IMG/VR virus record: IMGVR_UViG_3300019890_000004
Span: 1-64,000 of that record
Length of the DNA stretch: 64,000 nt
Direction: 5' to 3' (one strand)
From: a virus
Shown: positions 5,842-48,708 of the stretch, in pieces
Layout of the letters: every line of letters begins with the position of its first letter
Position numbering within the stretch: position 1 is the stretch's first letter
Made by a program: the position numbers and the translations under genes
Notes under the pieces: generated by a model
Seen by the model: only the letters and a program-made list of their open reading frames with translations
What the model was told of the DNA's origin: nothing
Database searches by the model: none

Positions 5842-7248
5842 ATGCCCAGCGAGCTCCGCGAGGCACTCACCGTCAGCGGTGTAGGCCCGCTTCTCCCGAA
5901 GATCATCGACCCGCTCCTCCTGGAGTACATGCGGCGCATCGCGCCCCTGGTGCGGGCCATCCCGTCCACCAAATGGGACACCGACGTCTACTACTGGAAC
6001 AACCGTTCCGCGGTCGCCACCGGCGGGTTCGTGTCCGACGGCGGCGCCGCCCCCGTCAGCAACTCGGTGTACAACCAGTCCAGCTTCCAGATGAAGCACC
6101 TCCAGATCGTCGGCGCGGTCACCGGGTACAGCCAGGCCGTCACCCGCATGGTCATCGGCGACCTGCGGCAGACTGAAATCGAGGGCTCCATCCAGGGCCT
6201 CCTGTGGGACACCGAGACCGCGATCGACTGGGGCAACTCCGCCTCCACGATCAACGGGGCACGCCCGCAGTTCGACGGCCTTGACACGCAGGTCGCGACA
6301 TACTCCGGCGCTTACCAGAACGCGCAGGACAAGGGCGGCAACACGCTCACCACCGCCCACCTCGACGAGCTCATGAACATGGTGCAGATCAACGCGTCCA
6401 TGCCGCTCCTGGGCAGCAGCTGGATGTTCGTCTGCTCGTCCACGGTCATCAGCAAGGTCGCCCAGCTCCTCCAGGGCCAGCAGCGGTTCAGCCAGGTCCA
6501 GGTCGCCCCCGGCCTCCTCGTCGACTCCTACCGCAACATCCCGATGATGACCACGTCGTTCCTGGCGCCGCAGTCCTACGGCATGAGCACCGTCACCGCG
6601 GCAGGCGCGTCCGGGTCCCTGCCCGGCGGCCTGTCCTCGCTCACCGGCTCCCTCGCCAACGCCGCCTACAAGTACGTGGTAGCCCCGGTCATCGCCCGCT
6701 CCGGCGAGATCCTGCCCTGCGCCGAGGTCACGGCCACCACGGGCGGCACCTCCGGGTACGCCACCCTGTCGTTCTCCGTCCCGTCGGGGCAGGACGGCGC
6801 CCTGCCGACCCTGTACAAGGTGTACCGGACCGCCTCGGGCGGGGCGGCGGGCAGCGAGACGTTCCTCGGCTACGTCGACAGCACTGTCGGGCTCGCGGCG
6901 GACGGCGTTACCCCCGTGTACGCCACCTGCATCGTCGACAGCGGCGCCGCGCTCATCCCCGTCGTCGGCTCGTCCGCGACCACAGTGCCCGGCACCCTCG
7001 CGACCACGTACTTCGGCACCAACACCGGCATGTACCCGCTCGCCGCCGGGCTGGAGAACATCTACCTCATGGCCAGGGACCGCAATTTCGTGATCCGGCC
7101 CTACGTGAGGGAATGCATGCCACTCGATGTGTATCCGACCACTAACTCTCCGGATTCACTGCCTTATGCGCTCGTTACCGATACCTGCCTGGCTGTGCGG
7201 GCGCCGCGTTACCTCGGCAGGCTCAGCCGGGTCACCACAAGCGTCTAA
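5842..7248 (+). CDS. Major capsid protein with inserted Ig/FN3-like domain
   Basis: 468 residues; ATG 5842 with GGAAGGG upstream. The N-terminal part (LLEYMRRIAPLVRAIPS, later SFQMKHLQIVGAVTGYS) and the C-terminal part (MPLDVYPTTNSPDSLPYAL) have the character of an HK97-fold capsid protein of the type seen in large-capsid actinophages. Between about residues 255 and 385 is a Ser/Thr/Gly-rich beta segment (LSFSVPSGQDGALPTLYKVY) that reads like an FN3/Ig-type insertion, probably surface-exposed. Length and position after protease/scaffold support the call. Confidence 0.85.
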   Translation: MPSELREALTVSGVGPLLPKIIDPLLLEYMRRIAPLVRAIPSTKWDTDVYYWNNRSAVATGGFVSDGGAAPVSNSVYNQSSFQMKHLQIVGAVTGYSQAVTRMVIGDLRQTEIEGSIQGLLWDTETAIDWGNSASTINGARPQFDGLDTQVATYSGAYQNAQDKGGNTLTTAHLDELMNMVQINASMPLLGSSWMFVCSSTVISKVAQLLQGQQRFSQVQVAPGLLVDSYRNIPMMTTSFLAPQSYGMSTVTAAGASGSLPGGLSSLTGSLANAAYKYVVAPVIARSGEILPCAEVTATTGGTSGYATLSFSVPSGQDGALPTLYKVYRTASGGAAGSETFLGYVDSTVGLAADGVTPVYATCIVDSGAALIPVVGSSATTVPGTLATTYFGTNTGMYPLAAGLENIYLMARDRNFVIRPYVRECMPLDVYPTTNSPDSLPYALVTDTCLAVRAPRYLGRLSRVTTSV

Positions 7249-37845: not shown

Positions 37846-38162
37846 CCGGACGCCTGCGGGACGATGGACACGAACTGTCCCGACGGGCAGGACGGCACTC
37901 CGTCGGTGAGCACTGGCGCGGTCACCGGCTGGTCCAGGTTCCATGCCGAGGTTGATAGCTGGAGGAAGCCCATATTCCCCGCGGTGATGTTCACGCATAC
38001 GCCGAGGTGGGCGGTCTCGGCGTTGCGCCCGGTCTGGCCCTGCGGCCCGGGCGCTCCCTGCGGGCCGCGCGGCCCGGACGGCCCGCCATGGGCGACGCTT
38101 ACTCCCAGTGCCGCGCCGGCGAAGGCGCAGGCAATAAGCGAGATGATTCTCGCGAGCATCAT
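37842..38162 (-). CDS. Membrane-anchored collagen-like protein
   Basis: 106 residues from ATG 38162. N-terminal hydrophobic signal/anchor (RIISLIACAFAGAALGVSV), then a short collagen-like Gly-X-Y tract (GPSGPRGPQGAPGPQGQTG), then a globular end with two cysteines (LGVCVNIT, VPSCPSG). Likely outside the membrane, possibly trimeric through the collagen tract. Sits between the glycosidase lipoprotein and a membrane protein. Confidence 0.65.
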   Translation of the reverse strand: MMLARIISLIACAFAGAALGVSVAHGGPSGPRGPQGAPGPQGQTGRNAETAHLGVCVNITAGNMGFLQLSTSAWNLDQPVTAPVLTDGVPSCPSGQFVSIVPQASG

Positions 38163-39211
38163 CGGCCCCCTTCCGTGCATGACCGGATGGCCGCCTCGGC
38201 TGCCGGGCGGTTCTCGAATTTCACCGGTGACGGCGACGGGGCTGCCGGGTCGTCGGCGAGGTTGATGTTCCAGAACCAGATCCCGCGCATGTGCTCGGCG
38301 GCTGCTGCGGTGCAGGCGGCGGTGAACCAGCGTGCCTGCACCTCGTCGTCGGGCGGCCCGGACCCTGGCCAGTCCCACGGTCTCCCGTACGCGCCTGCCG
38401 CTGCGGGGATGCCGATCTCGTCGATCGCGGTCCGGTGCAGCACCGGCGCGGGGACGCGGGACAGGAAGGCCTCCCATGCCGCGGTCAGATCCGTCACCGT
38501 GGCGGTGGCCGGGAGGGCGATGTTCGGGTAGGCGGTCACCCCGTACTCGCTGACCGGCATGAGGTGGCCGTCACCGTAGAAGAACCCGCCGTCGCCCGGC
38601 TCCCCGCCCCACTGGGCGTAGGAGAGGATGCCGCGGTAGATGCCCGCCGCTTTCGCGAAGAACCAGGCCCACCGGGGGCTCGACGCGATCGAGGCGCGCT
38701 CGGTCCCGGCGATGAACTCTGCGACATGGTCTTGCTGCGCGAGGGCCAGGTAGGGCCGTTCGGCGGCGAGGAGGCTGCCGAGGAACCCCGCGGGGCGCGC
38801 CGGGCGCAGCGGCTCGACGCGCCCCGGGACCCGCAGCAGCACCCGGTAGGTGACCTGGAGCCCGTACGAGCGGGCGATCGACGTCAGCGCGCCGATGTCG
38901 GCCGGCGGCGGGGTGCCGGGACCGGCCGCGTCGACGGTGCTCGCGCGGTCGCCGCGCACCTCGTACGTCCATGCGATCTGCACCGCGCTGACGTGCAGGA
39001 CGCGGGCAGCCCAGGCGATGCTCTGCCGCCCGCGCGCCTCCGTATCGGCAAGCGGCCAGTCCCGGTCGGCGTACAGCACGACGCCCGCCGTGAGCCGGTA
39101 CGGCGCCGGGGAAGGCCCCGGGGGTACCGGGCCGGAGCTGAAGCTGAGGCGCGCCGTGCAGCCGGCCAGGAGCAGGGCCGCGGCCGCGCAGCCCGCAGCG
39201 CGCCGCCTCAC
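38159..39211 (-). CDS. Lipoprotein with glycosidase-like TIM barrel
   Basis: 350 residues from GTG 39211 (GTGA overlap). N-terminus VRRRAAGCAAAALLLAGC is a lipoprotein signal with lipobox LAGC. The rest looks like a glycoside-hydrolase barrel of the GH113/mannanase-like kind: ALTSIARSYGLQVTYRV, SPRWAWFFAKAAGIYRG, TAIDEIGIPAAAGAYG (with a Glu in a position typical of a nucleophile) and MRGIWFWNINLADDP. Catalytic role and substrate are inferred. It is coupled to the glycosyltransferase gene, so the pair probably acts on the same surface polymer. Confidence 0.65.
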   Translation of the reverse strand: MRRRAAGCAAAALLLAGCTARLSFSSGPVPPGPSPAPYRLTAGVVLYADRDWPLADTEARGRQSIAWAARVLHVSAVQIAWTYEVRGDRASTVDAAGPGTPPPADIGALTSIARSYGLQVTYRVLLRVPGRVEPLRPARPAGFLGSLLAAERPYLALAQQDHVAEFIAGTERASIASSPRWAWFFAKAAGIYRGILSYAQWGGEPGDGGFFYGDGHLMPVSEYGVTAYPNIALPATATVTDLTAAWEAFLSRVPAPVLHRTAIDEIGIPAAAGAYGRPWDWPGSGPPDDEVQARWFTAACTAAAAEHMRGIWFWNINLADDPAAPSPSPVKFENRPAAEAAIRSCTEGGR

Positions 39212-42200
39212 CGGCGCAGCCTCCAGACGGTGACGGTCCCGTTGAACCCGGTCCATGACCTCACCGGGACCGCCCCGGCGAACACGCGCCGGAACGGCAC
39301 GTCCCCGAGCGACTGCGTCGTCTGGAGGTAGGTGTCCCAGGTGATCGCCCAGGACGCTTCCCCTTCGCACGGGCCGGATACCTGCTCACGGCAGTACGGC
39401 TGGCCGATCAGGTCCCCGACGGCCTCGTCGGCGATCACGACCGCGCCGGGCGGGATCGATGCGGCCGCGTACTGCTGCACGCCGGCGAACACGTTGTCGT
39501 CATGGGCGGCGACGCGGGCGCCGAACGACAGCAGCCCGGCCGCGACCGCCGCAGCGGCGATTACCGCGCGGTAACGCGGCCGCACTTGGCGCCGGTGCGC
39601 CTCCGTCCAGAAGTAGGCGTAGGCGGGAATGAGGATGAGGGCGAAGTACTGCGGGAACCGCAGCGAGCTGGCACCGAACACGACGACCCCGGCAGTCATC
39701 CACGACAGCAGCAGGGCGTTGCCGCGCAGCGAGGCGAGGTTCCGCGCCCGCCACGCCGACCGGACCCGCCGCAGCGCCGTCACCACGCCCGCGCACGCGA
39801 CCGCGAGGCTGGCCGCGAACATCCAGTACTCGCCGAAGAGCAGGTGCAGCGCCTTCGCCGGCGATGTCAGCGTCCCGCCGGACTGCTGGACGCCGAGGAC
39901 CCGGCGAACCTGCACTATCGTGTCCTGCCACCACAGGTGGCCGCCGAACATCCGCGCCTCGATGAGGATGCACCCGGCGAACGCGGCGGCCGCGCAGCCG
40001 AGGAGCACCAGGTGCCCGCGGCGGTCACCGCGGCGGATGAGCCAGCACAGGGCGACCGCGACGAGAACATACGTCCCGGTGTATTTGAACGCCGCGGCGA
40101 ACCCCAGGACGGATCCGGCGGCGGCGAACCGCTGCCACGACGGGCGGTCCAGTGCCGCCTGGTACAGCAGCATCCCGCCGGTGATGAGCGCGAGCAGCGC
40201 GTTCTCCAGGTAGCTGACCCGCTGGATGTACAGCAACCACCCGTCGAGCATGACCGGGACAATGGCGAACAGCGCCGTCCGCGGCCCGTGGACCCGCCGG
40301 ACCAGCAGGTACAGCAGTCCCAGCGACGCAAGCGAGCACGCCGCCCCGAGGAGCCGGGCGTGGTAGACGGACGGCCCGGCGGCGGCGAACCAGCGGGCGA
40401 GCGCCAGGAAGTAGAACGGCGGCTGGAACAGGTCAGTGGTCACCGCCGTGCCGTAGGTGGCGTGCTCGGCGAGCTGCCCGTGGCGCAGCAGGCCCGTCGC
40501 GACCTGGGTGTAGACGCCTTCGTCGTACTGCCAGCCGGGGCGGGATGCCAGGGACCACAGGCGCAGGACGGCACCGGCGGCGAAGACGGCGGCGAGCGCG
40601 AGCAGCCCGGCGCGTCCCAGCCCGCGCGCCGGCGCCCGCGGGCCCGCGGAATCCCACACCGGAGCGTCTCGTTCGGTGGGCATCAGCAGGGTAGTGGTCA
40701 GCGTCCACGCGAACACCCCGCCGAGGGCGAGGGCCGCGGCCGGGTAGGCGGCTGCCTCGAGGGACCGGGACCGCACCGCTTCCCGTCCCGACAGGACTGC
40801 CAGCGCGCCGACCGCCAGTGCCAGCACCGCGAGGGCGTGCCCTTCCGCCGCGGCGGCGGCTGCCGCGATCACCGCGGCGAGAGCGGCGACCGGGAGGCCG
40901 AAGGCCTGCGCCCTCCGCTTCCCCGCCAGCGCCGACCCCGGGTGCCGCCGGACGAACTGGGCGCACCCGTGCGCGGACCGCCGGTACTCGCGCACCAGGT
41001 GCGCGAACTTCTCCCGGTGATGATGATCACCGGTCAGGCCCGGGTGCATGGTGATCGGGCACCCGTCCTCGGCGAGGCGGTGCATCCACTCGTAGTCCTC
41101 GTACCCGTACGCCCACGCCACGTCCAGGGGGCACGCCTCGTACGCGGCCCGGGTGACGACCGCGTTGGCGGTGACCGGGGGCTTGCGGCCCCGGTGCCCG
41201 AAGTTCGCCGCCGTCACCGCGTACGGGCCCGGGATCCGCGACGTCTTCGCCGCCAGGATGTTGTTGTCGACGAACCGGGGCCAGAACTTGTGCGGCCGGA
41301 TCGCCCGCATCCCCCCGCCGACCAGGCCCCCGCCCTGCTCCCGCAGGAGGCCCACGGCCCGGGTCAGCCACCCGGGGTCCATCACTATGTCGGAGTCCGC
41401 CAGGGCGATGACCTCCCCGTGCGCGGCCCGGACGCCCTTGTCCCGCTTCACGTTCGGGTCACGGCGGCCGGGGGTCTTCTCCTGCTCGACCAGCCTCAGC
41501 CGCCGGTCCCGCACTCCGTCCAGCGCGGCCCAGGTGGAGTCGCCGACGTCGCCGACGAGGATCACCTCGAGGAGCCCCGGGTAGTCCTGGGCGAGCAGCG
41601 ACTCCACGGTCGCCAGGATCGTCGCCTCGTTCCCCTTGCAGGGGATCACCGCGCTCACGGAAGGCTGCCACCGCGGCGGCAGCGGAACAACAGGCCGCAG
41701 CACCCCGCCGTCGCGGCTCTTGCGGGCGACGCGGGTGGCGGTGAACGTCCACAGGTCGCCGGTGACGTAGTTCGCCGCCAGGAACACGGCGGTGACTGCC
41801 AGGTTCGCGGCCAGCCACCCAAGGCCGACGCGCAGCAGCAGCGCGTACAGGGCGAAGTTCGGGGCGGTCAGGGCCAGCTTCTGCACGTTGAACCGCCACG
41901 CCGCCGGCCAGAACGGCGACCGCCGGTCCCGCCACGTCACCCGCCAGTTCAGGGCGAAGCTCGCCTCGATGCTGAACACGGCCTGCCCAGCGTAGGACCC
42001 GTACCGGCCTGCATGGGCGGCGACCAGGAGCGCCTGCACGGCAATGCCGGCGACGAGGACCAGGGCGCCGATCGCGCTGAACGCGGTGAACCTCGCCCCG
42101 TGCCTGGCCAGGACCACGCCCGCGGGGGTCGACGGCGGGGCGGAATGACGGCCGCGGCCCGGGGCCATGACTGCGGCTGCCCGGTCGAGCTCGGCGCGCT

Positions 42201-42435
42201 CCGGCTCGCCGAGCGCCCTGAGCTGGTCCCCGGGCGCAAGCCGTTCCTGCTCCCCGGTGTACGGCCCGTCGTACGGGGGGAACTCCCGCGTGGCGGTTAC
42301 CGCCGACTGCCGTGCGGCGAGTTCCTCGAGCACTGCGGTCGCGTCGAGCACCTCGCCCGTATTCGGCCCGAGGTACGGCTGCTCCCGGAGTTCCCGCCAG
42401 TCTTCGTTGGGGAGGGTGGGGGCGTCGGCGTTCAC
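39208..42435 (-). CDS. Tripartite glycosyltransferase: GtrA-like, GT2 and GT-C (PMT-like) modules in one protein
   Basis: 1075 residues from GTG 42435 with GGAG upstream. Residues about 120-255: four hydrophobic segments like GtrA flippases (FSAIGALVLVAGIAVQAL, ANLAVTAVFLAANYVTGDLW). Residues about 290-510: GT2 domain with VSAVIPCKGNEATIL and the metal-binding ALADSDIVMDPGW, later HREKF. Then hydrophobic helices, and from about 650 a GT-C/PMT (GT39-like) part with WQYDEGVYTQVA and FQPPFYFLA plus ten or so membrane segments. In serotype-converting phages these jobs belong to three genes (gtrA, gtrB, gtr type); here they appear fused. Confidence 0.8.
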   Translation of the reverse strand: MNADAPTLPNEDWRELREQPYLGPNTGEVLDATAVLEELAARQSAVTATREFPPYDGPYTGEQERLAPGDQLRALGEPERAELDRAAAVMAPGRGRHSAPPSTPAGVVLARHGARFTAFSAIGALVLVAGIAVQALLVAAHAGRYGSYAGQAVFSIEASFALNWRVTWRDRRSPFWPAAWRFNVQKLALTAPNFALYALLLRVGLGWLAANLAVTAVFLAANYVTGDLWTFTATRVARKSRDGGVLRPVVPLPPRWQPSVSAVIPCKGNEATILATVESLLAQDYPGLLEVILVGDVGDSTWAALDGVRDRRLRLVEQEKTPGRRDPNVKRDKGVRAAHGEVIALADSDIVMDPGWLTRAVGLLREQGGGLVGGGMRAIRPHKFWPRFVDNNILAAKTSRIPGPYAVTAANFGHRGRKPPVTANAVVTRAAYEACPLDVAWAYGYEDYEWMHRLAEDGCPITMHPGLTGDHHHREKFAHLVREYRRSAHGCAQFVRRHPGSALAGKRRAQAFGLPVAALAAVIAAAAAAAEGHALAVLALAVGALAVLSGREAVRSRSLEAAAYPAAALALGGVFAWTLTTTLLMPTERDAPVWDSAGPRAPARGLGRAGLLALAAVFAAGAVLRLWSLASRPGWQYDEGVYTQVATGLLRHGQLAEHATYGTAVTTDLFQPPFYFLALARWFAAAGPSVYHARLLGAACSLASLGLLYLLVRRVHGPRTALFAIVPVMLDGWLLYIQRVSYLENALLALITGGMLLYQAALDRPSWQRFAAAGSVLGFAAAFKYTGTYVLVAVALCWLIRRGDRRGHLVLLGCAAAAFAGCILIEARMFGGHLWWQDTIVQVRRVLGVQQSGGTLTSPAKALHLLFGEYWMFAASLAVACAGVVTALRRVRSAWRARNLASLRGNALLLSWMTAGVVVFGASSLRFPQYFALILIPAYAYFWTEAHRRQVRPRYRAVIAAAAVAAGLLSFGARVAAHDDNVFAGVQQYAAASIPPGAVVIADEAVGDLIGQPYCREQVSGPCEGEASWAITWDTYLQTTQSLGDVPFRRVFAGAVPVRSWTGFNGTVTVWRLRR

Positions 42436-42560
42436 GCGGCACTCCTGACCGTGCGGGCGATGTCGAGGCATGCGGAGGCGAACGACACGGCACCGCAGGC
42501 GGCGAGGGCCAGTGCCGGAAGGATGTCGATGGGCTCGGCGAGGAGAACGGCGGCGATCAT
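42432..42560 (-). CDS. Small membrane protein (42 aa)
   Basis: ATG 42560 overlaps the excisionase stop and its own stop overlaps the glycosyltransferase start (GTGA). Sequence MIAAVLLAEPIDILPALALAA with a single hydrophobic helix. The double coupling strongly suggests real translation. Role unknown; maybe a partner of the large membrane transferase. Confidence 0.6.
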   Translation of the reverse strand: MIAAVLLAEPIDILPALALAACGAVSFASACLDIARTVRSAA

Positions 42561-42787
42561 GCGGCACCCTGCGCGGCCGGCCGCGGGTCGACGCGGCGCG
42601 CGTCGAGCCAGGCGTCAACGTCATCCAGGTCGTAGCGGACATGCTTGCCCACCGGGATGTACTTGGGGCCCTCGTGCTTGTGCCGCCAGTCCTTGAGGGT
42701 GTCCGGGGAGATCCCCCCCAGGTAATCGCCGACTTCCTCGGGACTCGCCAGCGGGCGCTTCTCGGGCGGCTTCTGTGCGCCGGGCAT
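42557..42787 (-). CDS. xis: Excisionase / MerR-like recombination directionality factor
   Basis: 76 residues from ATG 42787, with AGGAGGG upstream. Winged-helix excisionase pattern: ASPEEVGDYLGGISPDTLKD, then WRHKHEGPKYIPVGKHVRY and DLDDVDAWLDARR. Transcribed away from repressor and integrase, it opens the leftward conversion operon and lies beside the operator region. Expected to bind near attP and bias the integrase towards excision, and possibly to act as a repressor. Confidence 0.8.
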   Translation of the reverse strand: MPGAQKPPEKRPLASPEEVGDYLGGISPDTLKDWRHKHEGPKYIPVGKHVRYDLDDVDAWLDARRVDPRPAAQGAA

Positions 42788-42804
42788 GGCGCCCTCCTGA
42801 TCCG

Positions 42805-42859
42805 GCAGGAATCCTGCTCTTAGGGAAGTAATGCAACCGGACCATACCGGAGCGGTTGC
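42805..42859. promoter_or_regulatory. Divergent control region between excisionase and repressor
   Basis: Two inverted repeats: GCAGGAATCCTGC (42805-42817) and GCAACCG (42833-42839) facing CGGTTGC (42853-42859), the latter with an inner CCGG..CCGG symmetry. They lie in the 100-base gap between divergent starts, the usual place for repressor operators. No -10/-35 pair is clear. Confidence 0.6.
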
Positions 42860-42890
42860 GCCCTGTCCAGCCAGATGGTTTACTGCCCGA

Positions 42891-43592
42891 ATGGCAGGAT
42901 CAAAGGAAGCCGGCCCGGCGGCCAGGCTCGTCGCGGCGAACCTGCGGCGCATCCGCCAGGAGCAGGGGCTCAGCTACGCCGAGCTCGCCCGGCGGCTCGC
43001 CGCCATCGGCCACCCTGTCGGCGACACCGCGCTCCTCAAGACCGAGAAGGGGGACCGCAGGGCCAGCGTGGACGACCTCGTCGCCTTCGCGATCGCGCTC
43101 GGGACCGCGCCCGGCCGGCTGCTGCTGCCCCCGATGGACATCGATCACCTCGCCGACGAGTACGAGCTCACCCCGCAGGTGAAGGAAACGCCCCCGCTGC
43201 TGCACGCCTGGGCGGCAGGCGAGGTCCCCCTGGGCAGCCTGCCCGTGTCAGCGAGGAGCGACCGGGCCGCACGGGGCGCGGAAGTGGTCTTCAGCCGGGA
43301 GAACCGGCCGCACCACTGGAACGCGCCTGCCCCGGCCGTCCCCGAGCCGGGCGAGGCCGCGGCACGGGTATTCGCCGTCACCGGCATTGCCGCGTTCATC
43401 CAGGAGGCGTTCATCTCCGGCCTGTCCACCGCGGACATCCGCGCCGCCGTCGAGGGCGCGCTCGCGACAGCGCTCCTGATCCCCGACCCCGCCTCGGCAT
43501 CCGTCCGGATCGAGGTAGACGAAGGCCGGGTGACCGTCTGGACCGGTCCCCCGGACTCCCCCGGCTCCCCCGAAGCGCAGGAGGAACAGTGA
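42891..43592 (+). CDS. Immunity repressor (XRE-family HTH)
   Basis: 233 residues from ATG 42891. Residues 12-65 form an XRE helix-turn-helix (LRRIRQEQGLSYAELARRL, LLKTEKGDRRASVDDLVAF). Pro-rich centre and a C-terminal helical/beta domain (VTGIAAFIQEAFISGLSTAD, VRIEVDEGRVTVWTG) with no visible RecA-dependent Ser/Lys autoprotease motif. No ribosome site precedes the ATG, so the mRNA may be leaderless, as for many actinophage repressors. Overlaps the integrase start by four bases. Confidence 0.75.
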   Translation: MAGSKEAGPAARLVAANLRRIRQEQGLSYAELARRLAAIGHPVGDTALLKTEKGDRRASVDDLVAFAIALGTAPGRLLLPPMDIDHLADEYELTPQVKETPPLLHAWAAGEVPLGSLPVSARSDRAARGAEVVFSRENRPHHWNAPAPAVPEPGEAAARVFAVTGIAAFIQEAFISGLSTADIRAAVEGALATALLIPDPASASVRIEVDEGRVTVWTGPPDSPGSPEAQEEQ

Positions 43593-45070
43593 GCGTCTAC
43601 GACCGGTGGCACCTCGCCCATCCCCCGGCGGGAGCGAAGAAGTGCGGCCAGCACCGTAAGGCGCCGAGCTCGGCGCACGGGACGGGGCTGCGCTGGCAGG
43701 TGCGCGGCACCGACCAGGACGGGCGCCAGGTCAAGCAGAACTTCGAGTTCGAGGAGGACGCGAAGGACAAGGAAGCCGAGCTCAAGGCATCCGTCCGGGC
43801 CGGGACGTTCGTCGATGACCGGGCCGGGAAGATCACCTTCCAGGTCTACGCCGAGCAGTGGCGGAAGACCCGCGTCCACGACCCGGTGACCGCCGAGCGG
43901 ATCCGGTCGGCGTTCGAGAACCACGTCTACGAGGGGCGCGCGAAGGGCGCGGCGAAGGGGAAGACCGCGCAGGGCGGCAACTCGATCGGCCAGTACCCGA
44001 TGGCCGCGCTGTCGCGCCGCGTGTCGATCGTCCAGGGATGGATCGCGAGCCTGCCCGGGCACGCGAATACGGCGCTCCTGATGATCACTGACGTGAGCCA
44101 GGTGTTCCGCGCCGCGGTGGACGACAAGATCATCGCCCTGAACCCGCTGGCCGCCGATTCGGTGCAGAAGCCCCGCCCGGTGGAGAGCCAGGCCGTCGCG
44201 TGGCCTCGCGAGCGCGTCGAGGCGGTGGCCGCGGAGCTGCCCGCCGGGATGCAGCCGATGCCTTACCTCGGGGCGTGCTGCGCGCACCGGCAGGGGGAGC
44301 TGTGCGCGGTCGCGCTGGAGGACCTCGACTTCCTGCGGAAAACGTGCGGGATCTCGTATCAGGTCAAGTACATGGACGTGACCGGGGTGGCCGACCTGAC
44401 GTCGCCGCCGCGCCCGTCGCCGCTGCGGGGGAAGATCCTGGTCTTCGCGCCGACGAAGAACAAGAAGCCCCGCGAGGTGCCGGTCGCCGACGAGGTGATC
44501 CTGATGCTGTCCGCGCACCTGGCCGGGTGCCCGGCGACGGCGGTGACGCTGCCGAGGGTGCGGCGCGACGGGAAGATCGAGGGGGACCTCACGCGGCGCC
44601 TGGTGTTCACGAACGGCGGGCGCCCCTGGTACAGGGGGACGGTCCAGCGCCCGTGGGACAGGGCACGGAAGGCCGCGGGGGTACCGGCGGCGGCTCAGGT
44701 GAACGGGTGGCACGTCCTGCGCCACACGGCCGCGTCCGAGTGGCTGTCGAAGGGCCTGGGCCTCGCGAAGACCGCGGCGTACCTCGGCGACACGCAGGGG
44801 GTCGTGCTGAAGACCAGGCCCCATTTCATGCCGGCCGACGAGGACCGGGCGCGGGAGATCATGAACGCGTTCTTCTCGGCTCCTGCGGAGAGCGCAGATG
44901 CCCCCAGAATGACCTCTGACCTCCCGGCGGGGTCGTTATGGCTGCTGAGAGTGCTGCTGCTGCACTACCGCACGAACTTCAGCGGCATGCAGGCGGGCGC
45001 GTTCCGGTTCACGTTCACGCAGGCCAGGAGGTGTTTTATGGTCCGGACACGTATGGTTGGGTCGGGATGA
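43589..45070 (+). CDS. int: Tyrosine-recombinase integrase lacking the expected tyrosine
   Basis: 493 residues from GTG 43589 (GTGA overlap with the repressor). Arm/SAM-like domain at 55-200 (VYAEQWRKTRVHDPVTAERI), catalytic domain from about 205: AHRQGELCAVALEDLDF (Arg I), a beta hairpin Lys in PTKNKKPREVPVAD, HVLRHTAASEWL at 375-386 (His/Arg). At the place where family members read T-Y-[AS]-H-F the sequence is T409-R410-P-H-F, so the nucleophile is absent; the next Tyr is 460 in an unusual C-terminal extension. Integration activity is therefore doubtful. Confidence 0.85.
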   Translation: MSVYDRWHLAHPPAGAKKCGQHRKAPSSAHGTGLRWQVRGTDQDGRQVKQNFEFEEDAKDKEAELKASVRAGTFVDDRAGKITFQVYAEQWRKTRVHDPVTAERIRSAFENHVYEGRAKGAAKGKTAQGGNSIGQYPMAALSRRVSIVQGWIASLPGHANTALLMITDVSQVFRAAVDDKIIALNPLAADSVQKPRPVESQAVAWPRERVEAVAAELPAGMQPMPYLGACCAHRQGELCAVALEDLDFLRKTCGISYQVKYMDVTGVADLTSPPRPSPLRGKILVFAPTKNKKPREVPVADEVILMLSAHLAGCPATAVTLPRVRRDGKIEGDLTRRLVFTNGGRPWYRGTVQRPWDRARKAAGVPAAAQVNGWHVLRHTAASEWLSKGLGLAKTAAYLGDTQGVVLKTRPHFMPADEDRAREIMNAFFSAPAESADAPRMTSDLPAGSLWLLRVLLLHYRTNFSGMQAGAFRFTFTQARRCFMVRTRMVGSG

Positions 45071-45080
45071 GTCCGGACAC
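45041..45080. repeat. Paired GTCCGGACAC repeats (arm-site candidates)
   Basis: GTCCGGACAC occurs at 45041-45050 and 45071-45080, exactly 30 bases apart start to start, at the 3' end of the integrase gene. Each holds the palindrome GTCCGGAC. Direct repeats about three helical turns apart beside int are typical of arm-type integrase sites. Confidence 0.5.
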
Positions 45081-45312
45081 TTAAACGCCCCGAAAATGAC
45101 CTGACCCCATAGAGCCCCTCCCGCATCCGCCCTGGAATCACGAATCGCGAATCGCGATCTTCCCCGGGAAGCAAGAGACGGGAGATAACGCCCGTGACGA
45201 GCGCCGCGTGCAACGGGACGACCCTGGGGGCTGGAACCAGGCCGTGACGCTCCAACGGAACTTGAGCCCGGGAAGCAAGGAAGGCGCGGAGCGTGAGCGC
45301 CGCGCCTTCCCC

Positions 45313-45376
45313 TGCTCTGCCGGACTGAGCTACAGGGACACCCGAGAGTCCCTGGCGGGATTTGAACCCGCGACCT
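45313..45376 (-). tRNA. tRNA halves in permuted order (3' half before 5' half)
   Basis: On the minus strand 45376-45347 reads AGGTC, then T-arm GCGGG-TTCAAAT-CCCGC, then CAGGGAC and T, an excellent tRNA 3' half. Eight bases later 45339-45313 reads GTCCCTG-TA, D-stem GCTC, loop AGTCCGGCA, GAGC, A, an excellent 5' half. The two acceptor strands are perfectly complementary over 7 bp. No linear partner exists for either half. No anticodon arm could be assigned on either side, so a functional permuted tRNA, a degenerate tRNA, or an attachment core are all possible. Confidence 0.5.
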
Positions 45377-45586
45377 CTATCTCCCGGCCGGAGCCGGGAA
45401 GCTTGCCCGCGCGAGGGCTGAGCCCACTTGTCCCCGTCGCCGTGGGGAGCCAGGCCGGCGCGGCGGCCGCTCCCGAGTCTAGTCCTCGGGAAGCGCGAAG
45501 CCCCGCCCATCCACCGTCCGGAAGACTGCGAGGCTCACGACTTCGCCGCGCTATTGCACGACGCGGGATCAGGATACAGCGGGGCC

Positions 45587-45620
45587 CGGCCGCCGCCGGG
45601 TAGCGCCCCGGCGGCGGCCG
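45587..45620. repeat. Long GC hairpin
   Basis: CGGCCGCCGCCGGG (45587-45600) pairs with CCCCGGCGGCGGCCG (45606-45620) around a 5-base loop. No U-tract on either strand. Could be a structural RNA element, a transcription barrier or a protein-binding site of the attachment region. Confidence 0.5.
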
Positions 45621-45767
45621 TACTACGCCCCAACGGAAAGCAGGCTACCTGCAAGGGGGGCGGGTGCCGGGCCGTTCGCGGTACGCCCGGCCACCCTTCG
45701 GTGAGGCGGGGGAGACAGGATCTCGTTACGGTTTCGAGCACCGGCCAGCACGTAATCCGCCGCGAGC

Positions 45768-45781
45768 GGTGACTGGTCACC
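45768..45781. promoter_or_regulatory. Palindrome GGTGACTGGTCACC
   Basis: A 14-base near-perfect palindrome (arms GGTGAC and GTCACC) about 40 bases beyond the stop of the small membrane gene. Could be an operator or part of the recombination region; no adjacent promoter identified. Confidence 0.35.
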
Positions 45782-45821
45782 CATTCCTAGCGTTCCCCCA
45801 GTGGGAGTCCTGCGGGCTAGC

Positions 45822-45941
45822 CTAGCTCGCCTGGCGTGCGATCTGGAGCTGCTGGTACTGAAACCAGGTGCCTACCACCTGGACGCCGAGGGCTAGTGCC
45901 GCAAGGAAAACTAGCCATGCGTTAGTGGTCTTCTGGTCCAC
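45822..45941 (-). CDS. Small single-span membrane protein (39 aa)
   Basis: GTG 45941 follows AAGGAGG seven bases upstream, a near-perfect ribosome site. The product begins MDQKTTNAWLVFLAALALGV and continues with a short cytosolic end (WFQYQQLQIARQAS). One transmembrane helix. It is last in the leftward early series and separated from it by about 115 bases, so may have its own promoter. Confidence 0.65.
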   Translation of the reverse strand: MDQKTTNAWLVFLAALALGVQVVGTWFQYQQLQIARQAS

Positions 45942-46012
45942 TGGGGGGCCTCCTTCAGGTTTGGGCCTGCAATGATCGCGAGACCTTCACCTGGACGCTA
46001 TCGATCAGGTTC

Positions 46013-46025
46013 CCGTAAATTACGG
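46013..46025. promoter_or_regulatory. Palindrome CCGTAAATTACGG
   Basis: Perfect 13-base AT-centred palindrome between the 46058 and 45822 genes, six bases downstream (on the minus strand) of TTGACA (46032-46037). Likely an operator governing the small membrane protein gene. A matching -10 at 17 bases is not evident. Confidence 0.45.
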
Positions 46026-46057
46026 CATGCCTGTCAATAGCCGTTACCTAAACGTGA

Positions 46058-46348
46058 TCATATCCATTTCCCGAACTGTCCCCCGGCCCACATCCGCCGC
46101 CAGCCAGCCGGACACCGGTCAACGCCGAGCAGCGGGTTAGGGCCCCCGTCCCGCTTCCTCGACCAGAGCGTCACCAGGCACCAGGTGCACACCTCGTAGT
46201 ACACGTCGCAGTGGTGCGGCTGATGATACCCGCGCACCCAGCACCATGGCCGCCACGCGTAGGTGCCGAGGTATGCGGAGACCCAGACCGGGGCGTCGTC
46301 CTGAGTCCATATCCATAGCCGGTGGAACCGGCGCTGCATCGGCGTCAC
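46058..46348 (-). CDS. Hypothetical protein, Trp/Cys-rich
   Basis: 96 residues from GTG 46348 (GTGA overlap). Unusually rich in Trp, Tyr and Cys (RLWIWTQDDAPVWVSAYLG, WRPWCWVRGYHQPHHC, YEVCTWCLVTLW), ending in WRRMWAGGQFGKWI. Pattern suggests a small zinc-binding fold. End of the main early operon. No family recognised. Confidence 0.55.
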   Translation of the reverse strand: MTPMQRRFHRLWIWTQDDAPVWVSAYLGTYAWRPWCWVRGYHQPHHCDVYYEVCTWCLVTLWSRKRDGGPNPLLGVDRCPAGWRRMWAGGQFGKWI

Positions 46349-48029: not shown

Positions 48030-48283
48030 CGCTCTTCTCCTTCGCTGCGCTCATCGCGGAACTCTCTTGCCTGCACGCCGTGCGCCTTCAGCTCGGCGAG
48101 GATGTCGTCTTCGGTCCGCCCGTAGTGGATGACCACCTCGATCTGCGGGAGGCCGAGCTGCTTCATCTGCGCCGCACTGACCCTGATCGGCTCGCCCGCT
48201 GCCAGCCGGGTGACGTTCTCACCGGACAGGCCGAGCAGGAGCAGCGGGATACCGAGGCCGGTCTTGCCGGCCGCCTTGATCAT
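48026..48283 (-). CDS. Conserved small phage protein
   Basis: 85 residues from ATG 48283 (ATGA overlap). KTGLGIPLLLLGLSGENVTR, LAAGEPIRVS and LPQIEVVIHYGRTEDDILAE form a compact alpha/beta protein that I have seen as a recurrent small gene in actinophages, function unknown. Lies between the phosphatase and the RHIM-motif genes with four-base overlaps on both sides. Confidence 0.6.
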   Translation of the reverse strand: MIKAAGKTGLGIPLLLLGLSGENVTRLAAGEPIRVSAAQMKQLGLPQIEVVIHYGRTEDDILAELKAHGVQAREFRDERSEGEER

Positions 48284-48708
48284 CAGAAGTTGCCTTCCGC
48301 CACGGCGAAGCAGGTGAGGCCGAGGGACCGCCACATGGCGACAACGCGAGCCCGGTCATCGATTACGCCGGTGATCTCGTAGAAGTCCCGGATTTCGCGC
48401 TCGTAGATTGCGCACTTGAGCTTGTCGTCAGGCGTGTAGTCGCCGTCGGGCCGCATGTGCAGGTGAACCGCGTCGATGCGGTGCCGGTTCAGCCACGCGA
48501 TCGTCGCGAAGCGGCACTCCTCCATCCGGCCCGACACGAAGATGATCCGGTGTCCGGCGCCGATAAGTGCGCGGACGACCGCGAGAACGGGCTCGTTCGG
48601 CTTGTCCTCGCCGACCCGGCTCCAGTCGTACGGGCTGCGGTCGCCCCTCAGTGCCACGGTGCCGTCGATGTCGACGATCCACGCCTTCGGCCTGGTCTCA
48701 GGCTGCAT
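48283..48708 (-). CDS. Polynucleotide 3'-phosphatase domain (HAD; PNKP C-terminal type)
   Basis: 141 residues from ATG 48708. HAD motif I DIDGT at 13-17 (nucleophile Asp13), motif II FVSGR, then ATIAWLNRH, HMRPDGDYTPDDKLK with the motif III Lys, and IDDRARVVAMW as motif IV. This is the phosphatase half of T4 Pnkp without a kinase domain. It would remove 3'-phosphate or 2',3'-cyclic phosphate from nucleic acid ends. The RlaP-like gene follows one gene upstream, which points to RNA end healing. Confidence 0.85.
   Translation of the reverse strand: MQPETRPKAWIVDIDGTVALRGDRSPYDWSRVGEDKPNEPVLAVVRALIGAGHRIIFVSGRMEECRFATIAWLNRHRIDAVHLHMRPDGDYTPDDKLKCAIYEREIRDFYEITGVIDDRARVVAMWRSLGLTCFAVAEGNF

What the first reader, a model, noticed from the sequence alone, without database searches (positions are those of the whole stretch)
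45313..45376. tRNA halves in permuted order next to the integrase
Seen: a textbook T-arm/acceptor half lies immediately upstream (on the minus strand) of a textbook D-arm half; their acceptor strands pair perfectly and are joined by an 8-base loop. Linear tRNA models fail for both. Permuted tRNA genes are known in algae and some archaea and would be remarkable in a phage; a permuted self-splicing intron could circularise the transcript. A simpler reading is an attachment core derived from host tRNA with rearrangement.
Basis: seen in the sequence. Interest (0 to 1): 0.75.

Follow-up and report, generated by a model that had tools for sequence, protein, structure and literature searches.

The report
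tRNA-like block in phage attachment site
Beside a damaged phage integrase gene lie the two ends of a tRNA in swapped order; the block looks like the phage's docking site for the host chromosome, shaped like a known bacterial tRNA mimic (Y RNA), rather than a working permuted tRNA gene.

Summary
In detail: minus strand 45376-45313 reads variable loop, T arm, 3' acceptor strand, 8-nt loop, 5' acceptor strand (7/7 pairs), D arm. This is the layout of the tRNA-mimic domain of bacterial Y RNAs (Rfam YrlA, 37.4 bits, E 2.5e-6). A model built from 73 Ro60-linked phage modules scores it 69.5 bits.

It is not a usable permuted tRNA: there is no anticodon arm and no Rfam intron match. It also fails the Y RNA tests outside the core: no Ro60 gene in the 71.6-kb record, and neither the upstream motif nor the adjacent closing helix seen in 93 of 93 Ro60-linked modules.

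Capsid relatives explain the place. Of 12 with a tyrosine integrase, 4 carry a tRNA 3' half within 350 nt downstream of int (3 on the strand opposite int, as here): the usual attP core. Four direct CGGGAAGC repeats flank the window block, two on each side. Best reading (0.5): attP core, beside an integrase that lacks its catalytic tyrosine. The target, a Y-RNA-like gene or a rearranged tRNA, is unknown. A 9-bp distant helix keeps an orphan Y RNA alive (0.3). By-product: Ro60-less permuted tRNA mimics in complete phages Rey and Abafar.

The parts
45313..45376 (-). tRNA-like block in permuted order: variable loop, T arm, acceptor 3' strand, 8-nt loop, acceptor 5' strand, D arm, position 26
   Evidence: YrlA 37.4 bits, E 2.5e-6; R1 69.5 bits, E 1.2e-14
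45348..45376 (-). T half (tRNA positions 44-72): proposed attP core, equivalent in place to the tRNA 3' halves beside int in relatives
45313..45339 (-). D half (tRNA positions 1-26), fused 8 nt after the T half; absent from the relatives' attP-type sites
45165..45172 (+). CGGGAAGC repeat 1, proposed arm-type integrase site
45269..45276 (+). CGGGAAGC repeat 2 (13-bp identity with repeat 1)
45395..45402 (+). CGGGAAGC repeat 3, other side of the block
45487..45494 (+). CGGGAAGC repeat 4
45381..45400 (-). hairpin H1 (8 bp, UUCCCGGC/GCCGGGAG) just 5' of the block
45279..45310 (-). hairpin H2 (14-bp arms, 93 percent complementary) just 3' of the block; in the predicted fold it competes with the D arm
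45378..45386 (-). CGGGAGATA, 9-bp perfect complement of 45179-45187; possible closing helix of an orphan Y RNA (rival reading)
45179..45187 (-). TATCTCCCG, distant partner of 45378-45386
43589..45070 (+). tyrosine integrase frame (PF00589, phrog_1); catalytic Tyr replaced (LKTRPHFMP against LRTYTHLMP), C-terminal run-on
42831..43592 (+). HTH protein, probable repressor
42557..42952 (-). HTH_17 protein, possible excisionase

Best explanation
The block is the core of the phage's attachment site (attP), not an expressed permuted tRNA. A phage of this family carries int followed by a short attP holding the 3' part of the host RNA gene it integrates into, so that integration rebuilds that gene. Here the T half is that 3' part. 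The D half and the closed acceptor hairpin come with it because the target (or donor) was either a gene with the Y RNA (YrlA) layout, in which T arm, acceptor and D arm all lie 3' of the crossover, or an ordinary tRNA (Arg-like by sequence) whose core was later rearranged, for example from tandem copies. Shown: the block, its neighbours, the relatives' tRNA halves beside int, the repeats. Inferred: attP function, the arm-site role of the repeats, the target. The integrase lacks its catalytic tyrosine in this record, so the site may be vestigial.
For: Of 12 capsid relatives with a PF00589 integrase among 35 records searched, 4 have a tRNA 3' half within 350 nt downstream of the int stop (G018, G020, G045, G047): Thr-TGT, Thr-CGT and Thr-CGT on the strand opposite int, Pro-GGG on the int strand; a fifth (G021) has one at 1.4 kb. 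The window T half is about 298 nt past the int stop, on the strand opposite int. Four same-strand CGGGAAGC copies lie at 45165 and 45269 on one side of the block and 45395 and 45487 on the other; four copies of any 8-mer within 340 bp occurred in 0 of 1000 shuffles of 45071-46058, four copies in 1 of 300 shuffles of a 625-bp region. Integrating islands often carry a tDNA fragment in a ~250-bp attP, 3760 of 3919 islands with a 3' fragment, about half with the crossover in the T-stem region (PMC4383910, passages). The block lacks the closing helix and upstream motif of Ro60-linked Y RNAs, as expected if only the 3' part of a target gene was captured.
Against: No host gene with the T half was found: GCGGGTTCAAATCCCGCCAGGGAC is exact in 3 loci of genome contigs (three tRNA-Arg genes in an uncultured bacterium, Calescibacterium and SAR202; none titled actinobacterial) and in 1 viral contig, a tRNA-Glu. 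attP and attB can differ, though: the Boilgate core has five mismatches in 43 bp (PMC10865867, passages). No relative has a D half at this place. 8 of 12 integrase-bearing relatives show no tRNA half within 350 nt. The other relatives' attP halves begin in the anticodon loop, this one at position 44. G018 and G020 show no comparable flanking repeats. The integrase looks dead. P0001 matches the relatives at E 0.001 in only 1 of 36. A 9-bp helix could close an orphan RNA.
Confidence: 0.5

Rival explanations
1. Orphan Y RNA: a transcribed YrlA-type RNA whose Ro60 partner is encoded by the host or was lost. The tRNA-like domain would sit on a stem made by CGGGAGATA (45386-45378) and TATCTCCCG (45187-45179), with hairpin H2 and more hairpins inserted after the D arm.
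For: Core scores as high as Ro60-linked modules (69.5 bits; best of those scored was 68.7, but G024 70.2 and L409 71.3 are higher). The 9-bp helix whose 5' strand lies 3-7 nt from the T stem was reached in 9 of 2000 shuffles. RNA 45400-45268 folds with z -5.55. Ro60-less modules exist in complete phages Rey and Abafar. The module has sequence hits to true Y RNAs.
Against: No TROVE in the record, nor any match of the phage Ro60 alignment at E 10. 93 of 93 Ro60-linked modules have an upstream motif from a list written after seeing them (shuffle rate 9.9 percent) and a closing helix of at least 2 bp; the window has no motif and 1 bp. Ro60-less modules in phages keep an adjacent closing helix, 2 to 6 bp over the 11 measured. 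Among 36 capsid relatives R1 modules occur in the 5 with Ro60 plus G033. The predicted fold does not use the 9-bp helix and H2 competes with the D arm.
Confidence: 0.3
2. Debris of two adjacent tRNA genes: the end of one and the start of the next, left after deletions, with matching acceptors because the two were tandem copies. No present function.
For: Tandem tRNA junctions score up to about 63 bits with R1. The halves are closest to tRNA-Arg(CCU): 47 of 53 in tRNAs not fetched by this sequence. The D half recurs exactly in ordinary phage tRNAs.
Against: No other tRNA in the window. Both halves end exactly at the variable loop and at position 26, with no anticodon-stem remnant on either side. 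All stems are intact, unusual for debris.
Confidence: 0.14
3. True circularly permuted tRNA gene, matured by circularisation and cleavage in the acceptor loop.
For: Order and perfect acceptor pairing. Phage modules with an anticodon-like arm completed across both halves exist next to Ro60 (91 of 138).
Against: No anticodon arm or loop beside the window block; no intron family at threshold; all canonical features fit a tRNA mimic.
Confidence: 0.02

Closest known systems
attP sites of tyrosine-integrase phages that target tRNA genes (e.g. Boilgate at attB-4, Omega at attB-11; Islander tDNA islands)
   Same: Next to int; contains a tRNA 3' fragment; repeats flanking the core; same position in relatives.
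   Different: Carries a D half in permuted order after the T half; no anticodon-loop part; target not identified; integrase lacks Tyr.
YrlA-type bacterial Y RNA (Rfam RF02553)
   Same: T arm, acceptor hairpin closed by a short loop, D arm, in this order.
   Different: No Ro60, no Ro-type motif, no adjacent closing stem; below the Rfam gathering score (37.4 against 69).
Permuted tRNA genes of algae and archaea
   Same: 3' half precedes 5' half; acceptor ends joined by a short spacer.
   Different: No anticodon arm, so no complete tRNA could be made.
tRNA-dependent lysogeny (Fionnbharth type)
   Same: attP that need not rebuild the host tRNA.
   Different: There the phage also encodes an intact tRNA; none is found here.

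Membership tests
attP of tRNA-targeting tyrosine-integrase phage | adjacent tyrosine integrase gene | tested here: met
   PF00589 at 44282-44788 in the 43589-45070 frame; catalytic Tyr missing
attP of tRNA-targeting tyrosine-integrase phage | fragment of the target RNA gene in the core | tested here: inconclusive
   a tRNA 3' half is present but its host gene was not found
attP of tRNA-targeting tyrosine-integrase phage | arm-type repeats flanking the core | tested here: inconclusive
   four CGGGAAGC copies, two each side; binding not shown
attP of tRNA-targeting tyrosine-integrase phage | recombination with attB | not testable with these tools
   no lysogen or host sequence
YrlA Y RNA | tRNA-like domain in order T, acceptor, D | tested here: met
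YrlA Y RNA | Rfam gathering score | tested here: not met
   37.4 against 69 bits; positions 27-81 of 114 only. Phage Y RNAs in 13 loci also miss it
YrlA Y RNA | Ro60 gene linked | tested here: not met
YrlA Y RNA | Ro-binding stem with upstream motif and adjacent closing helix | tested here: not met
   a distant 9-bp helix exists
YrlA Y RNA | RNA expressed and bound by Ro60 | not testable with these tools
   no RNA data
permuted tRNA gene | both halves together give a full cloverleaf with anticodon | tested here: not met
   no anticodon arm
permuted group I or II intron | intron core in the flanks | tested here: not met
   Rfam: none at gathering; 15.3-bit group-II line at E 0.98 only. A permuted-intron model was not available

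The most novel reading that the evidence does not exclude
The phage integrates into a Y RNA (YrlA-type) gene. Its attP holds everything from the T arm to the 3' side of that gene and lacks only the 5' strand, so integration rebuilds the Y RNA, as tRNA-targeting phages rebuild tRNAs. Prediction: the host attB reads the same block preceded by a strand complementary to the AGGGGA that follows the D arm.
Probability: 0.12. Interest if true: 0.7.

Novelty: new variant of a known kind. Interest (0 to 1): 0.42.

Why it matters
If the target is a Y RNA gene, a third class of small-RNA gene would join tRNA and tmRNA genes as integration sites, and Y RNA genes next to integrases would become a place to look for prophages. 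Even as an ordinary tRNA-derived attP, the case shows how an attachment core can imitate a permuted tRNA gene. The survey also shows that permuted tRNA mimics are common in phages, many imitate an anticodon arm, and some occur in complete phage genomes without Ro60.

Tried and rejected
Ro60-linked Y RNA: first choice; lowered because no Ro60 and flanks fail. Permuted intron: no Rfam support. Exact host tRNA core: not found in actinobacterial genomes of genome contigs, nor beyond one tRNA-Glu in viral contigs. Relatives by integrase: none in viral contigs or genome contigs, none in phages, 3 Streptomyces plasmids at 26-29 percent. Same-acceptor modules: 0 in viral contigs. Synteny of window genes with stretches of G018, G024, G032, G033: little. 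A full-length Y RNA model with flanks was planned but not built; the flank test was used instead. Its motif list was written after looking at the same sequences, so 93 of 93 is not an independent test; one of 94 selected modules (L220 near 1390, tandem tRNAs) was dropped before the count. A4 modules were chosen by their pairing, so the covariation counts are by construction; 73 of the 94 selected went into A4. L130-L132 were fetched by the exact T half, so their closeness is biased. In one search the orphan L077 was not measured. 36 of the 70 capsid relatives were searched, 35 (G005 was). R1 matches include weak ones that were not all inspected.

Full report
WHAT IS THERE. On the minus strand, 45376-45313 reads AGGTC, T arm, CAGGGAC, TCTCGGGT, GTCCCTG, TA, D arm, A. 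The acceptor strands pair 7 of 7. ARAGORN finds no tRNA. The record is a 71,571-base linear virus record with a head protein, a tape-measure protein and an integrase, so a temperate tailed phage; G+C is 70.5 percent.

WHAT IT LOOKS LIKE. Rfam in permissive mode puts the block in RF02553 YrlA, positions 27-81 of 114, 37.4 bits, E 2.5e-6, below the family's 69-bit threshold. Y RNAs tether the ring protein Ro60; the YrlA type carries a tRNA-like domain (PMC7790460, passages; Chen et al. 2014 was not held, so its details are recalled). To test membership I collected phage modules. A pattern scan of viral contigs and a pairing script gave non-tandem modules; 7 of 15 such records encode Ro60, and in those seven the module lies a short way upstream of Ro60 on its strand (with the gene positions). 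Two alignments of phage Ro60 then brought 421 and 159 relatives, of which 160 loci were kept. Of these, 106 carry at least one module, 138 modules in all, 137 on the Ro60 strand. A covariance model of 73 core sequences (R1) finds one place in the window, exactly 45376-45313, at 69.5 bits, E 1.2e-14, above every module, but below one relative (70.2) and one prophage Y RNA (71.3). BLAST of the 68-nt block also reaches a Rhizobium Y RNA between Ro60 and rtcB (Rfam YrlA 94.9 bits) and a Y RNA upstream of a 'Ro-like' gene in prophiGD43A-5.

WHERE IT FAILS AS A Y RNA. The record has no TROVE domain and no match to the phage Ro60 alignment at E 10. All 93 Ro60-linked modules examined have an upstream motif (shuffled rate 9.9 percent; list written post hoc) and at least 2 bp of closing helix between the nucleotides after the D arm and before the T arm, 82 of 93 at least 3; the window has no motif and 1 bp. 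Shuffled flanks reach 3 bp in about 47 percent, so the helix alone is weak evidence. The 11 Ro60-less modules measured keep 2 to 6 bp. Against this, CGGGAGATA just 5' of the block pairs with TATCTCCCG beyond the D arm; 9 of 2000 shuffles do as well. That is the best argument for an orphan Y RNA with inserted hairpins. The 133-nt RNA folds with z -5.55, but the fold uses hairpins H1 and H2, and H2 takes bases of the D arm; the longer fold does not use the 9-bp helix.

WHAT THE RELATIVES SAY. The head protein brought 70 relatives. Of 36 longer records searched, 5 encode Ro60 and R1 modules occur in those 5 and in G033: in this family the module tracks Ro60, and the window is an exception. Of 35 searched for PF00589, 12 have it. 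In 4 of the 12 a tRNA 3' half starts within 350 nt after the int stop: G018 (Thr-TGT), G020 and G045 (Thr-CGT), all opposite to int, and G047 (Pro-GGG) on the int strand; in G021 one lies 1.4 kb away. These are the usual attP cores: common cores of 30-45 bp with the tRNA 3' half (PMC10865867, abstract and passages), tDNA fragments in attP (PMC4383910, passages). The window T half lies in the same place and orientation. None of the relatives' sites has a D half beside it. The tRNA identities of these halves are my reading of the anticodon loop, not a tool's call.

REPEATS. CGGGAAGC occurs 13 times in the window against 4.6 expected; four copies lie on the plus strand at 45165, 45269, 45395 and 45487, two on each side of the block. 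Four copies of any 8-mer within 340 bp arose in 0 of 1000 shuffles of 45071-46058, four copies in 1 of 300 of 45071-45695. Two of the four comparison sites (G045, G047) have three-copy repeats around the half, G018 and G020 none. I read the four copies as arm-type sites; this is inference. The acceptor strands with their 8-nt loop also form an inverted repeat of the size of a recombinase core site (recalled comparison).

THE INTEGRASE. Aligned with a Streptomyces plasmid integrase (31 percent over the alignment), the frame has LKTRPHFMP where the relative has LRTYTHLMP, and LGD for LGH; the frame runs about 50 residues past the relative's end. It probably does not recombine, or the assembly has an error there.

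ORIGIN OF THE HALVES. Exact T half: three tRNA-Arg genes in genomes not titled actinobacterial and one phage tRNA-Glu. Exact D half (22 nt): two phage contigs, both ordinary tRNAs. Best unbiased tRNA 47 of 53 positions (Arg-CCT), best Y module 45 of 53; this does not decide between them.

CONCLUSION. Attachment core 0.5, orphan Y RNA 0.3, tandem-tRNA debris 0.14, true permuted tRNA 0.02. Within the first, a Y-RNA-type target would explain at once why T arm, acceptor and D arm are all present and why only the 5' strand is missing; I give that 0.12. Searches for 'permuted tRNA' with 'phage', and for Y RNA with prophage and integration site, listed no paper that in title or abstract start describes such a site; most subscription papers are not in that library.

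Noticed in passing
L405:2996-3070 (Mycobacterium phage Rey, NC_041971.1 57989-58063): Unannotated permuted tRNA-like module directly after tRNA-Asn and before a GOLLD RNA, R1 67.8 bits, closing helix GCGGG/CCCGC; no Ro60 in the complete genome. 82.6 percent identical to modules just upstream of TROVE genes in Xanthomonas phages.
   Followed up: partly
L404:3497-3576 (Streptomyces phage Abafar): Unannotated permuted module between tRNA-Pro and tRNA-Gly in a tRNA array, R1 55.1 bits, closing helix GACCGG/CCGGTC; no Ro60 in the complete genome.
   Followed up: partly
L134-L293 (Ro60-linked phage loci): 91 of 138 phage Y RNA modules imitate an anticodon arm whose stem is completed across both halves (positions 27-28 after the D arm pair with 42-43 before the T arm), loops such as CTGCTAA and CTTGTAA. 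Shuffled upstream gives 0.7 percent, swapped partners 27 percent.
   Followed up: partly
L409:1456-1534 (prophiGD43A-5): A gene annotated tRNA-Thr(tgt) upstream of a 'Ro-like' gene overlaps a Y RNA module with an anticodon-like loop CTTGTAA; probable misannotation.
   Followed up: no
L388 about 7144-7219 (G033:37143-37218): Ro60-less permuted module between tRNA-Met and tRNA-Trp, closing helix 5 bp.
   Followed up: partly
L026, L036, L079, L082, L084, L100, L037: Rfam YrlA at its gathering score finds none of the Y RNAs in these Ro60-bearing phages.
   Followed up: no
window 43589-45070: Integrase lacks the catalytic tyrosine (T-R-P-H in place of T-Y-x-H) and has LGD for LGH.
   Followed up: partly
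window 38159-42642: A glycoside-hydrolase-like frame and a large GT2/PMT/GtrA glycosyltransferase frame on the minus strand beside the lysogeny genes.
   Followed up: no
window 48283-48708: HAD_PNKP phosphatase-like protein, E 1.4e-47, widespread in phages (2886 records).
   Followed up: no
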